From: Parcubacteria group bacterium
GTDB taxonomy: Bacteria > Patescibacteriota > Minisyncoccia > UBA6257 > JAAZHW01
Assembly: GCA_012510515.1 (NCBI GenBank)
Contig: JAAZHW010000075.1
Coordinates: 1-21,240, forward strand
Reading direction: 5' to 3'
DNA: 21,240 nt
The first letter of the stretch is position 1. Every line of letters begins with the position of its first letter. A model generated the notes under the pieces. That model had not been told where the DNA came from and made no database searches. It worked only from the letters and a program-made list of their open reading frames with translations. Shown here one piece after another: positions 9,341 through 16,123 of this stretch. The translations under genes were made by a program, and so were the position numbers.

Positions 9341-9628
9341 CCCACAGAATGACTGCTGTTTTTTAATGTCATCATAAAGACCCGCCTACGGCAGGCAGGC
9401 GAAGGATCTCTCGACTTTCAGTATTATGCGGATATCACTGCTGTGGGTGGGATTCTTCATTTCATTCAGAATGACAGCCAAGTTAACGTGGGATTCCTGC
9501 CTCTCGGCAGGCAGGCTTTGGCCCCTGCCTATCGGCAGGCAGCCGAAGGATCCTTCGGCTGTGCGTGGGATTCTTCACTAACGTTCAGAATGACTATGGA
9601 AACTCACTGCTGTGGATGGGATTCTTCC
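9341..9628. repeat. GC-rich dispersed-repeat cluster in the 418-bp nusA/9635 gap
   Basis: This gap between 9217 and 9635 holds no gene; the open frame at 9443-9694 is only repeat sequence. Its base composition is far richer in G and C than the rest. It contains copies of a unit reading CTGCTGTGGGTGGGATTCTTC...TTCAGAATGAC at 9438-9475 and 9559-9594, a truncated copy at 9607-9628, and a fragment (cagaatgactgctg) at 9345-9358. Between these are three palindromic modules built on CTGCC-n-GGCAG: 9381-9399, 9496-9516 and 9524-9542. From memory, GGATTCTTC...CAGAATGAC repeats and GCCTGCC/GGCAGGC palindromes occur as dispersed intergenic repeats in many CPR genomes. No transposase is present, so these would be non-autonomous or selfish short elements. 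Confidence 0.75.
9541..9560. repeat. Perfect 20-bp palindrome inside the repeat cluster
   Basis: AGCCGAAGGATCCTTCGGCT reads the same on both strands and abuts palindromic module 9524-9542. As RNA it would form a tight hairpin on either strand. It is part of the dispersed-repeat block rather than a terminator, since no T-run follows on either side. Confidence 0.8.
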
Positions 9629-9634
9629 TTATTC

Positions 9635-13073: not shown

Positions 13074-13337
13074 ATGTTAAAAAAAGAAGAAAAAATAAAA
13101 TTAATCAATCGGTATGGTAAAACCGAAAAAGACACGGGTTCAATAGAAGTTCAAATTGCCATTCTAACTGAGCAAATTAAAAAATTGACCGACCATTTAA
13201 AAACTCATCCGAAAGATAATAATTCTCGTCGCGGTCTTTTAAAAATGGTTTCTAAAAGAAAAAAATTTTTAAATTCTTTACAAAAAGAATCGGTTCGCCG
13301 ATACAATAAAATTATTAAAGAATTAAATTTAAAATAA
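13074..13337 (+). CDS. rpsO: 30S ribosomal protein S15
   Basis: Primary 16S rRNA-binding protein that grips the three-way junction of the central domain early in 30S assembly. Family signatures are DTGSIEVQIAILTEQI (residues 21-36), LTDHLKTHPKD (38-48) and SRRGLLKMVSKRKKFLNSL (51-69), ending RYNKIIKELNLK. At 87 residues it is near the usual 88-89. The rRNA-contacting motif usually reads D-H-H-S-R-R-G; here it is DNNSRRG, two His replaced by Asn. It is the first gene of the only plus-strand unit, with pnp two genes downstream as in the classic rpsO-pnp order. Confidence 0.97.
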   Translation: MLKKEEKIKLINRYGKTEKDTGSIEVQIAILTEQIKKLTDHLKTHPKDNNSRRGLLKMVSKRKKFLNSLQKESVRRYNKIIKELNLK

Positions 13338-13344
13338 ATTTATT

Positions 13345-13887
13345 ATGATAATGAAATACAAAGATCAGCGAGTAGCGATTTTTTTTGATATTCAAAATCT
13401 TTATCATTCAGCTAAAAATCTTTATCAATCTCGAGTAGATTTTTATGAAGTTTTTAAAAAAGCCGCTGCTAATCGTAAAATAATTAGAGCCATTGCTTAT
13501 GTTGTCAAAAGTGATACCGTTGAAAAAGAAGCTTCTTTTTTTGATGCTTTAGAAAACATTGGAATAGAATTAAAAATGAAAGATTTACAAGTCTATGCTA
13601 ATGGATTAAAAAAAGCTGATTGGGATGTGGGAATAGCTGTTGATGCCATTCGTCTTGCTCCTAGCGTTGATAGTATTATTTTAGCAACTGGCGATGGTGA
13701 TTTTCTTCCTTTGATTGAATATTTGAAAAGTTTAGGAAAAATAGTAGAAGTAATTTCTTTTGGACACAATACTTCTGCTAAAATAAAAGAAGTAGCCGAT
13801 GATTTTATTGATTTAGAAAAAAACTCTCAAAAATTTCTTATAAAAAGTCCATTAATAAAAAAATCAAAATCGAAATTTCCAAAATAA
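13345..13887 (+). CDS. NYN-domain (LabA/DUF88-like) putative ribonuclease
   Basis: 180 residues with a PIN-like NYN fold. Readable family motifs: AIFFDIQNLY (residues 11-20, the first acidic site), KKADWDVGIAVDAI (92-105, with two acidic residues) and ATGDGDFLPLIEYLKSLGKIVEVISF (112-137; the usual S/TGDGDF metal-binding motif). The C-terminal tail is Lys/Ser-rich and may contact RNA. NYN proteins are predicted or shown metal-dependent RNases; the substrate here is unknown. The gene begins 7 bp after rpsO and precedes pnp, placing a putative endonuclease beside an exonuclease in one unit. Start at ATG 13345 or the in-frame ATG 13351; neither has a Shine-Dalgarno sequence. Confidence 0.88.
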   Translation: MIMKYKDQRVAIFFDIQNLYHSAKNLYQSRVDFYEVFKKAAANRKIIRAIAYVVKSDTVEKEASFFDALENIGIELKMKDLQVYANGLKKADWDVGIAVDAIRLAPSVDSIILATGDGDFLPLIEYLKSLGKIVEVISFGHNTSAKIKEVADDFIDLEKNSQKFLIKSPLIKKSKSKFPK

Positions 13888-13912
13888 TTTGGGAATTATC
13901 GAAAATAAAAAT

Positions 13913-14000
13913 CCAAAAGAACAATTTAAATTAATGCGGAGGAGAGGATAAAAAATAAATTATTATCTTGTCCCCTGCTATTAAATAAATTGTCTTTTGG
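13913..14000 (+). promoter_or_regulatory. Long imperfect hairpin in front of pnp
   Basis: Arm 13913-13951 pairs with 13963-14000 around an 11-nt A/T loop. The outer part is CCAAAAGA then CAATTT on both arms (one bulged A), a small A/T internal loop follows, and the inner part is 16 nt with 14 pairs counting two G-U (GCGGAGGAGAGGATAA against TTATCTTGTCCCCTGC). The stem base ends 11 nt before the pnp ATG at 14012. No T-run follows, so it is not a terminator. Its inner 5' arm carries the only strong Shine-Dalgarno-like run in the intergenic regions (GGAGGAGAGG, 13938-13947), paired in the stem and with no usable start codon behind it. Confidence 0.75.
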
Positions 14001-14011
14001 AAAAATTAAAT

Positions 14012-16123
14012 ATGAAAGAAGAAAAAATTTTTTCTTTAGAAATTGCCGGAAGAAATCTTTCGGTAAAATTTTCAGAATTAGGAAAACAAACCAATCAGGC
14101 TCTCTTAATTCAATATGGCGAAACAACTGTTTTGATAACCGCTACGATGGGAAAAACTGATAATTTAGATAATGATTTTTTCCCTTTAACGGTAAATTAC
14201 GAAGAAAAATTCTATGCAGCTGGAAAAATTTTAGGTAGTCGTTTTGTTCGTCGCGAAGGAAAACCTTCGGAAAGCGCTATTTTAACTGGTCGACTTATTG
14301 ACCGTTCAATTAGACCATTATTCAATCAAAATTTACGTCGCGAAGTTCAAATTGTCGCTACGGTTTTATCTATTGATAATGATAATGACCCTGATTTTCC
14401 TGCTTTAATTGGCACTTCTATTGCTCTGGCCACTTCTGATATTCCTTGGGAAGGACCAATTTCAGCTATTCGGATTGGCTATCTAAACGAATTTAAAATT
14501 AATCCCACCTATCAAGAACGTAATGAAGGAATAATGGATTTGTTTTTAAGTAGTGCCGATAATAAGATTACTATGCTTGAAATAGGTGGAGATGAAGTTG
14601 AAGAAGAAAAAGTAATTAAAGCAACGGAATTAGCTTTAAAAGAAATCGAAAAACTACAAAATTTTCAAAAAGAGATTATTAAAGAAATGGGCAAAACTAA
14701 AACCAACGTTGTTTTAAAATCCATTGATTCTCAAATTAAAGAAAAAACCCTAGAATTTATTAAGGATAAATTAGAAGATGCTATTTATACTTCCGATAAA
14801 ATAAATCGCTCTTCAAAATTAAATCAACTCAAAAATGATTTAAAACAATTTTTACAAAATGAAGGATTAACTGATTCCTCAATTAAAGAAGCCTTTATTA
14901 TTTTGGAAGAAGAAATTGATAAAGTTGTTCACAAAAATATTTTAGAAAAAAACAAAAGACCCGATGATCGAAAATTAGACGAAATTAGACCACTTTATTG
15001 TGAAGTAAGTTTAATTCCTCGAGTTCATGGATCGGCAATTTTTATGCGAGGTGATACTCAAGCTTTATCAATTGTTACTTTGGCCGCTCCATCTAAAGGA
15101 CTAACCATCGAAACCATTGAAGAAAACGGCACTAAAAATTTTCTTCATCATTATAATTTTCCACCTTATGCTGTTGGAGAAATTTCTTCGATGAGAAATT
15201 TAGGAAGAAGAGAAATTGGTCATGGAGCTTTAGCAGAAAAATCTCTTTTGCCTATTATTCCTAATAAAGATGAATTTCCTTATACGATCAGAGTTGTTTC
15301 AGAAATTCTCTCTTCTAATGGTTCTTCTTCCATGGCTTCTGTTTGCGGATCAAGTTTAGCTTTAATGGATGCTGGTGTTCCCATAAAAAGACCAGCGGCT
15401 GGTATTGCAATGGGATTAATGCTTCAAGATGAAAATAATTATAAAATTCTAACCGATATTCAAGGACCAGAAGATCATTATGGAGATATGGATTTAAAAG
15501 TAGCTGGTACCGAAAAAGGCATTACGGGTATTCAAATGGATGTAAAAATAACAGGTATTACTATTAAAATTTTAGAAGAAGCACTTGCTCAAGCTAAAAA
15601 AGCCCGTCTCCAAATTTTAGAAAAAATCAAAGAAACCATTCCTACTCCTCGTTCCACCCTTTCTCCTTTAGCTCCTAAAATTTTTACCATTCAAATTAAT
15701 CCTGATAAAATTAAAGATGTTATTGGATCAGGAGGAAAAGTAATTAATGATATTATCAAAAAAACAGATGTAGAAATAGATATAAATGATGATGGTCAAA
15801 TTTTTATTACCGCTCCAACCAAAGAAGCCGGAGAAAAAGCCGCTGAGATAATCAAATCTATTACTCATGAATATAAAGAAGGTGAAATTGTTACTGGTAA
15901 AGTAATAAAAATTTTAGATTTTGGAGCAATTATTGATCTAGGAGGAAATCAAGATGGGCTTTTGCATATTTCAGAAATCGCTAATAGAAGAATCAACAAA
16001 GTAGAAGATGTTTTAAAATTAGGTCAAATTTTAACATTAAAAATAATAAAAATTGATGATGAAAATGGCCGAATTAGTCTTTCTTTAAAAGCTTTAAACA
16101 ATTCTTCTGACGATAAAAATTAA
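14012..16123 (+). CDS. pnp: Polyribonucleotide nucleotidyltransferase (PNPase)
   Basis: Trimeric phosphorolytic 3'-5' exoribonuclease, the main mRNA-degrading exonuclease and a degradosome partner. Domain order (residues from this ATG): first RNase PH core (1 to about 220), helical linker (to about 315), second RNase PH core (about 320-545), KH (about 548-610, VIGSGGKVINDI) and S1 (about 615-690, GEIVTGKVIKILDFGAIIDL). The active core has RRE (in NLGRREIGHGAL), SSNGSSSMASVCG and the catalytic EDHYGDMDLK, matching E. coli Asp486, Asp492 and Lys494. ATG 14012 gives 703 residues, a normal length. An in-frame TTG at 13997 would add five residues but lies in the base of the leader hairpin and is less likely. 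The hairpin upstream suggests autoregulation. Confidence 0.97.
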   Translation: MKEEKIFSLEIAGRNLSVKFSELGKQTNQALLIQYGETTVLITATMGKTDNLDNDFFPLTVNYEEKFYAAGKILGSRFVRREGKPSESAILTGRLIDRSIRPLFNQNLRREVQIVATVLSIDNDNDPDFPALIGTSIALATSDIPWEGPISAIRIGYLNEFKINPTYQERNEGIMDLFLSSADNKITMLEIGGDEVEEEKVIKATELALKEIEKLQNFQKEIIKEMGKTKTNVVLKSIDSQIKEKTLEFIKDKLEDAIYTSDKINRSSKLNQLKNDLKQFLQNEGLTDSSIKEAFIILEEEIDKVVHKNILEKNKRPDDRKLDEIRPLYCEVSLIPRVHGSAIFMRGDTQALSIVTLAAPSKGLTIETIEENGTKNFLHHYNFPPYAVGEISSMRNLGRREIGHGALAEKSLLPIIPNKDEFPYTIRVVSEILSSNGSSSMASVCGSSLALMDAGVPIKRPAAGIAMGLMLQDENNYKILTDIQGPEDHYGDMDLKVAGTEKGITGIQMDVKITGITIKILEEALAQAKKARLQILEKIKETIPTPRSTLSPLAPKIFTIQINPDKIKDVIGSGGKVINDIIKKTDVEIDINDDGQIFITAPTKEAGEKAAEIIKSITHEYKEGEIVTGKVIKILDFGAIIDLGGNQDGLLHISEIANRRINKVEDVLKLGQILTLKIIKIDDENGRISLSLKALNNSSDDKN

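What the first reader, a model, noticed from the sequence alone, without database searches (positions are those of the whole stretch)
13913..14000. Long hairpin directly upstream of pnp, a possible PNPase autoregulatory element
Seen: a stem of roughly 30 pairs with an 11-nt loop, ending 11 nt before the pnp start and not followed by a T-run. Known: in E. coli the rpsO-pnp spacer holds a long stem-loop cut by RNase III, after which PNPase removes the 5' duplex strand and represses its own mRNA. The same position and gene order here suggest either deep conservation of the control logic or convergence, in a CPR-like bacterium where such control is, to my knowledge, undescribed.
Basis: partly seen in the sequence, partly recalled or inferred. 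Interest (0 to 1): 0.75.

Follow-up and report, generated by a model that had tools for sequence, protein, structure and literature searches.

The report
RNA stem guarding the pnp start
Just before the gene for an RNA-degrading enzyme (PNPase), this tiny uncultured bacterium can form a long RNA hairpin of the kind that in E. coli lets the enzyme limit its own production, and a good part of its distant relatives carry such a hairpin at nearly the same distance from the gene although its sequence differs.

Summary
The stem is real: 35 pairs, 11-nt loop, 13912-14001, ending 10 nt before the pnp ATG (14012); none of 1000 shuffles folds as well (z -6.4). Of 164 readable genomes of the same order, those with a pnp spacer of 80-300 nt carry a strict stem (z<=-3, >=20 pairs, ending within 30 nt of the start) in 33 of 58, against 1 of 73 other same-strand spacers; spacers under 80 nt reach z<=-3 in 2 of 99. 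Stem-to-start distance is tight (median 10 nt). Before nyn, long spacers carry it in 14 of 31; before rpsO, 1 of 31. Sense RNA folds better than antisense in 36 of 44; no T-run follows; three family members show 5 of 29 pairs changed on both sides. The genome has RNase III, RNase J, RNase Y and a KH/S1 PNPase; no RNase E/G above cut-off. Best reading: an RNase III/PNPase-responsive leader like those of E. coli and Streptomyces, in a variant whose stem abuts the start. Cleavage and feedback are inferred. Against: 114 of 164 genomes show no strict stem, and one stem-bearing genome (93% complete) shows no RNase III hit.

The parts
13074..13337 (+). rpsO, ribosomal protein S15 (87 aa)
   Evidence: Pfam PF00312, E 2.5e-31
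13345..13887 (+). NYN-domain protein (180 aa) between rpsO and pnp
   Evidence: Pfam PF01936, E 2.5e-34; a NYN relative was found upstream of pnp in 157 of 164 order members read
13912..13951 (+). 5' arm of the stem (35 pairs)
   Evidence: MFE fold; pair changes in relatives
13952..13962 (+). 11-nt loop
   Evidence: MFE fold
13963..14001 (+). 3' arm of the stem; its foot contains the GGA (13999-14001) nearest to the pnp start
   Evidence: MFE fold; sequence
14002..14011 (+). 10-nt A/T-only gap, unpaired in the model, between stem and ATG; a similar spacing is seen in relatives (median 10 nt, IQR 8-13, n=35)
14012..16123 (+). pnp, PNPase with RNase PH, PNPase, KH and S1 domains
   Evidence: Pfam PF01138, PF03725, PF03726, PF00013, PF00575

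Best explanation
The stem is a sense-strand RNA element of the pnp mRNA leader that marks the 5' boundary of the pnp (in other genomes nyn-pnp) message after rpsO. Most likely RNase III cuts the long duplex, separating the upstream part from pnp and leaving a short 5' strand paired to the pnp leader; PNPase then degrades that strand from its new 3' end. Once the leader is single-stranded, the message loses protection and is translated less or destroyed. As this genome shows no RNase E/G above cut-off but has RNase J and RNase Y, the destroyer would probably be RNase J entering from the freed 5' end, or RNase Y. More PNPase means faster removal, hence negative feedback. Shown by computation: the stem, its tie to the pnp unit, its spacing, the sense-strand bias, and the presence of the genes. 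Inferred: co-transcription, cutting, strand removal, feedback, and the executing nuclease.
For: Stem far beyond chance. 33 of 58 pnp spacers of 80-300 nt carry a stem by a strict rule against 1 of 73 other same-strand spacers drawn from 18 genomes (Fisher p 4e-14; by majority in 22 of 41 genera). In the operon, among 140 genomes where all three upstream regions could be read: before pnp 25 of 45 long spacers, before nyn 14 of 31, before rpsO 1 of 31. Distance to the start codon is tight (IQR 8-13 nt) while distance to the upstream stop is loose (IQR 6-58) (n=35). Sense strand folds better than antisense in 36 of 44 (p 2.5e-5), in all 4 family members. Two-sided pair changes 5 against 1.7 in shuffles. 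T-run after the stem in 1 of 36. RNase III with catalytic and dsRNA-binding domains, RNase J, RNase Y, PNPase with KH and S1. RNase III gene found in 58 of 61 genomes, own included. In E. coli and Streptomyces RNase III cuts the rpsO-pnp hairpin and affects pnp expression (PMC10126417, PMC5872136, passages); in S. pyogenes RNase III-dependent cleavages of the pnp 5' UTR are reported and a similar control suggested (PMC6431027, passage).
Against: No transcript or cleavage data. 114 of 164 order members show no strict stem before pnp or nyn (the nyn upstream could be read in 155), so such control is dispensable. Of 58 long pnp spacers 25 fail the strict rule and 15 have z above -3. RNase III dependence is not shown: G115 (93% complete) has a 40-pair stem (z -7.5) and G067 (76% complete) a 28-pair stem, and neither gave an RNase III hit; gaps in the assemblies may explain it. 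Of three genomes without a hit, G045 and G055 lack the stem, but G060 has a 36-pair structure before nyn at z -2.7. With nyn more than 300 nt away the order shows a stem in only 1 of 5. Stems of different families could not be aligned; G003 in the same family has a branched, unrelated structure. Covariation rests on three sequences.
Confidence: 0.6

Rival explanations
1. The stem only insulates and stabilises: it shields the 3' end of the upstream RNA and the 5' end of the pnp RNA, with or without RNase III cutting, and PNPase has no feedback on it. (The rivals overlap with each other and with the best reading, so the odds do not sum to one.)
For: Fits the boundary position, the placement before nyn in many genomes with a long rpsO-nyn spacer and the sense-strand bias.
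Against: A pure 3' guard should sit near the upstream stop codon, but the stem is fixed relative to the downstream start. Stems of at least 20 pairs ending at -25..-5 also stand before rnc in 5 of 12 long spacers but before RNase J in only 1 of 23 (the two genome sets differ, the rnc set being chosen mainly for pnp stems), which hints at a link to RNase III.
Confidence: 0.25
2. The stem regulates translation directly: its foot lies 10 nt from the ATG and may gate ribosome access or act as a landing platform; nucleases are secondary.
For: Tight 10-nt spacing; the nearest GGA is in the 3' foot; AGGA, GGAG or GAGG at -18..-4 is rare here (1 of 36 with stem, 4 of 128 without).
Against: The strict stems have 20-46 pairs, median 33, far more than needed to mask a start site.
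Confidence: 0.25
3. An intrinsic terminator of rpsO-nyn, or on the reverse strand.
For: On the minus strand the stem is followed by AUUUUUAUUUU.
Against: No T-run on the plus strand; 1 of 36 stems has 6 or more T in the 8 nt after it; the sense strand is the more stable one; the position follows the pnp start. The terminator scan found none in the spacer, but it only allows loops of 3-8 nt and could not have seen this one.
Confidence: 0.05
4. A mobile or dispersed palindromic repeat that happened to land here.
For: In genus g76 (family f18) the stems share GTCATTCC...GGATGAC-type sequences, which resemble dispersed repeats (recalled; copy number not counted).
Against: Searched in the four family genomes, the window's stem is single-copy in its own; the only match with E under 0.01 elsewhere is the pnp leader of G002. 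Random landing would not concentrate stems at this distance before pnp.
Confidence: 0.05

Closest known systems
E. coli rpsO-pnp leader (RNase III-cut stem, PNPase autocontrol)
   Same: Long stem (37 pairs) in the rpsO-pnp interval, no U-run at its foot; folds beyond chance in the same pipeline (z -4.8 for 160 nt).
   Different: E. coli stem at -152..-56 with AAGGAT before the start; here the stem ends at -11, none of the SD motifs searched, a NYN gene between rpsO and the stem, no RNase E/G above cut-off.
Streptomyces coelicolor rpsO-pnp intergenic hairpin
   Same: Intergenic stem cut by RNase III; the rnc mutant has 2-4 fold higher PNPase activity (PMC10126417, passages).
   Different: S. 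coelicolor RNase III cuts at an internal loop of the stem; the stem-to-start distance there was not examined.
Streptococcus pyogenes pnp 5' UTR stem
   Same: RNase III-dependent cleavages in the pnp 5' UTR; a similar retro-regulation was suggested (PMC6431027, passage).
   Different: The underlying cleavage paper (PMC5389636) was not held; spacing and gene order not compared.
rncO, the RNase III operator of E. coli
   Same: Stem in front of an RNase gene, cut by RNase III (recalled; only its title seen, in the reference list of PMC3997798). Long stems precede rnc in some of these genomes.
   Different: Concerns rnc, not pnp; does not need PNPase (recalled).

Membership tests
RNase III-processed, PNPase-autocontrolled pnp leader | Long stem-loop between rpsO and pnp on the sense strand | tested here: met
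RNase III-processed, PNPase-autocontrolled pnp leader | rpsO upstream in the same orientation | tested here: met
   a NYN gene lies between; co-transcription not tested
RNase III-processed, PNPase-autocontrolled pnp leader | Genome encodes RNase III with catalytic and dsRNA-binding domains | tested here: met
RNase III-processed, PNPase-autocontrolled pnp leader | PNPase with KH and S1 domains (implicated in autoregulation, PMC10126417, passage) | tested here: met
RNase III-processed, PNPase-autocontrolled pnp leader | Pairing kept by compensatory change in relatives | tested here: inconclusive
   5 of 29 pairs changed on both sides, 2 of 500 shuffles as high, but 3 sequences only; other small groups counted without controls
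RNase III-processed, PNPase-autocontrolled pnp leader | RNase III cleaves within the stem | not testable with these tools
   needs in vitro cleavage or RNA-seq 5' ends
RNase III-processed, PNPase-autocontrolled pnp leader | PNPase removes the 5' strand and represses its own mRNA | not testable with these tools
   needs a reporter in a pnp deletion host
Intrinsic terminator | T-run directly after the stem on the transcribed strand | tested here: not met
Dispersed palindromic repeat | Multiple copies in the genome | tested here: not met
   single copy in G000 (a 95-contig assembly)
Rfam families (release 15) | Match at gathering score | tested here: not met
   0 matches in the window

The most novel reading that the evidence does not exclude
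In these reduced bacteria a long double-stranded foot about 10 nt before the start codon is a sequence-free control module for RNA-decay genes: RNase III and PNPase read only the duplex, so any palindrome, including dispersed repeats, can be recruited, and pnp (or nyn-pnp) and in some genomes rnc carry it. With RNase J as the executing nuclease it would be an RNase E-free design of PNPase feedback that arose many times.
Probability: 0.3. Interest if true: 0.72.

Novelty: new variant of a known kind. Interest (0 to 1): 0.55.

Why it matters
If true, it extends leader-stem control of PNPase from cultured bacteria (E. coli, Streptomyces, probably Streptococcus) to Patescibacteria with very small genomes, and shows an element held by position rather than sequence: the stem is replaced or rebuilt while its distance to the start is kept, and in many genomes where nyn abuts pnp it stands before nyn instead. 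It makes the question of how PNPase feedback could work without RNase E directly testable with a reporter.

Tried and rejected
Terminator, reverse-strand terminator and dispersed repeat were considered and ranked low for the reasons given above. A first classifier based on whole exterior domains was too lenient: it called 114 of 164 order loci positive but also 1065 of 1640 shuffles; it was replaced by z-scores and an unbranched-stem rule. The first DNA alignment used wrong coordinates for L002 and L003 and is void; one search replaced it. misread loci lying on the minus strand and was redone. Alignments of distant congeners (g27, g68, g85) gave nothing usable, and one g43 row was too short. 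A stem upstream of RNase J, first seen in one genome (L299), did not generalise (1 of 23 long spacers).

Rows dropped: one search found pnp in 226 of 244 order members but listed only part of them; G231 was left out because its match begins at base 59 of the contig, upstream DNA was taken for 167 genomes and 3 lacked 160 nt or a start, leaving 164. Of these the nyn upstream could be read in 155 and the rpsO upstream in 144; all three in 140, where an rpsO spacer length could be assigned in only 65. Two pnp spacers were removed from the background set. In one search, 27 of 30 RNase J loci and 26 of 29 rnc loci could be read; the window genome's own RNase J had too little upstream DNA. Two duplicate named loci (L032, L038) were left out of the tree, which used 102 rows. 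z-scores come from 60-80 shuffles and vary between runs (42 or 43 of 58). Structure prediction, protein homology search and covariance-model building were not used.

Literature: searches for Patescibacteria with polynucleotide phosphorylase, Parcubacteria with RNase III and candidate phyla radiation with ribonuclease and mRNA decay listed no paper that, by title and start of abstract, is about this; only open-licence papers are held, and (the S. pyogenes cleavage paper and two E. coli papers) were not held, so their content rests on citing papers and recall.

Full report
What is there. The spacer between the NYN gene stop (13887) and the pnp ATG (14012) folds into a small 5-pair hairpin and one long hairpin, 13912-14001, 35 pairs, 11-nt loop; the whole spacer has -35.8 kcal/mol; 0 of 200 shuffles and none of 1000 (best -27.5, z -6.4) reach it. 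The reverse strand also folds but less well (-30.5). Ten A/T bases follow, then the ATG. The genes are rpsO, a NYN-domain protein and a PNPase with KH and S1 domains. Rfam has no match in the window.

Nearest kin. The family has 4 held genomes and all 4 have strongly folding pnp spacers (z -6.7 to -9.5). Three have alignable stems (window, G001, G002): 29 consensus pairs, 93.1% of cells paired, 5 pairs changed on both sides against 1.7 expected in shuffles (2 of 500 as high); sliding the partners by one to three columns drops pairing to 49-61%. The fourth, G003, has a branched structure of unrelated sequence at a similar place. The window's stem is single-copy in its genome. Other small groups of congeners also show two-sided changes (g29: 3, g32: 4, g76: 16 pairs), counted without controls and, in g76, with 23 broken cells.

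The order. Upstream DNA was taken for 167 genomes, of which 164 were usable. The pnp spacer is bimodal. With a spacer under 80 nt, 2 of 99 have z<=-3; with 80-300 nt, 42 of 58 in one run and 43 of 58 in another. By a strict rule (z<=-3, at least 20 pairs in an unbranched stem, ending -30 to -1) it is 33 of 58, against 1 of 73 other same-strand spacers of the same length from 18 genomes (Fisher p 4e-14; by genus majority 22 of 41, p 2.5e-11, but by family majority only 6 of 15, any member 10 of 15). General foldedness (z<=-3) is common in background spacers too, 25 of 73, so it is the long stem at the start codon that stands out. Fifteen long pnp spacers have z above -3, among them both of family f13 and 3 of 4 of genus g166.

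Position. In 35 genomes with z<=-3 and at least 25 pairs, the stem foot lies a median 10 nt (IQR 8-13) before the start codon, while its 5' foot lies 6-58 nt (IQR) from the upstream stop. With the nearest NYN or rpsO more than 300 nt away, the order shows a strict stem in 1 of 5 (L028, 620 nt), and the named loci in 4 of 9, one being the same genome as L028 (L038, L041, L047, L058); so the stem can stay with pnp when nyn is far, but often does not. In many genomes where nyn abuts pnp the stem lies between rpsO and nyn, again near the start: strict in 14 of 31 long rpsO-nyn spacers, against 1 of 31 long spacers before rpsO. Strict stem before pnp alone: 34; before nyn alone: 14; both: 2; neither: 114, of 164 (nyn upstream unread in 9). 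With z<=-3 alone, 67 of 164 genomes in 16 of 27 families have it before pnp or nyn. So the element tends to mark the front of the pnp unit after rpsO.

RNA, not DNA. In 44 spacers folded beyond z -3 on either strand, the sense RNA is more stable in 36 and the antisense in 8 (p 2.5e-5; composition-corrected z 35 of 44). This is what G-U pairs kept on the transcribed strand would give. Close relatives are not independent, so the p-value is optimistic; non-stem spacers also lean this way, 10 to 4. Only 1 of 36 stems is followed by 6 or more T in 8 nt, and the Shine-Dalgarno-like motifs searched are rare with or without the stem (1 of 36, 4 of 128).

Beyond the order. Of 80 named loci (the best 80 of 581 hits; some are the same genomes as in the order set), 74 were usable: 15 of 50 with a long or unknown spacer have a strict stem, 0 of 24 with a short one. 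They include Moraniibacteriota (L047, L060, L063, L069), Spechtbacteria (L067), Staskawiczbacteria (L071) and one Anaerolineae (L109). None of the other Firmicutes, Acidobacteria and Chloroflexi rows with a long spacer is strict. On a PNPase tree of 102 rows (19 with a strict stem before pnp) the label needs 16 changes, at least 15 by well-supported branches, and is not clearly clustered (62 of 500 shuffles as low).

Enzymes. The genome encodes RNase III with both domains, RNase J and RNase Y; the RNase E/G model found only the S1 domain of PNPase, below cut-off. RNase III is found in 58 of 61 genomes and in 28 of 30 chosen ones, 26 of which have z<=-3 before pnp. The two without a hit, G067 (76% complete) and G115 (93%), both carry the stem; this counts against the model unless the gene is missing from the assemblies. 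Before rnc, a stem of at least 20 pairs ending at -25..-5 stands in 5 of 12 readable long spacers (60 nt or more), at -16 to -9, the window's genome among them, and in 1 of 14 short ones; before RNase J in 1 of 23 long ones, in a differently chosen genome set. In the family the rnc stem is not shared by G001, G002 or G003.

Mechanism. Published passages say that RNase III cuts the rpsO-pnp hairpin in E. coli and S. coelicolor and that PNPase activity rises 2-4 fold in the S. coelicolor rnc mutant (PMC10126417; PMC5872136), and report RNase III-dependent cleavages in the S. pyogenes pnp 5' UTR (PMC6431027). A short account of PNPase removing the freed strand is given in PMC7866481 (passage). 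I infer the same logic here, with RNase J or Y in place of RNase E. The difference is that the E. coli stem lies at -152..-56 and this one touches the start region, so strand removal would here also change ribosome access.

Literature. Searches for Patescibacteria with polynucleotide phosphorylase, Parcubacteria with RNase III, rpsO-pnp with intergenic hairpin and candidate phyla radiation with ribonuclease and mRNA decay were seen as listings; none of the listed papers is, by title and start of abstract, about such control in these bacteria. The library holds open-licence papers only.

Noticed in passing
L031:1072-1120 (own genome G000:C41), and upstream of rnc in L336, L346, L351, L355: The RNase III gene rnc is preceded by a long stem ending at -16 to -9 from its start in 5 of 12 readable long-spacer cases, reminiscent of the E. 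coli rnc operator (recalled).
   Followed up: partly
L299:16755-16825: A 26-pair stem (z -5.8) stands upstream of an RNase J gene in G066; it did not generalise to other genomes (1 of 23).
   Followed up: yes
pnp and rnc of genomes G028 and G047 (family f26; L123, L129, L359, L360): pnp hits carry two in-frame TGA codons and rnc hits one, perhaps a reassigned TGA.
   Followed up: no
window 9389-9630: A patch of imperfect direct and inverted repeats (GGCAGGCAGGCGAAGGATC and CTGTGGGTGGGATTCTTC types) between two minus-strand genes; it looks like a dispersed repeat element.
   Followed up: partly
upstream of pnp in L185, L194, L195, L212, L222, L228: In genus g76 the pnp leader stem is built from GTCATTCCGAGC...GCTCAGGATGAC sequences, suggesting that dispersed palindromes can be recruited as leader stems; copy number in those genomes was not counted.
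   Followed up: partly
window 13345-13887 and relatives: A NYN-domain gene lies upstream of pnp in 157 of 164 order members and within 40 nt of it, or overlapping, in 83; a nuclease-fold partner of PNPase would be plausible.
   Followed up: no
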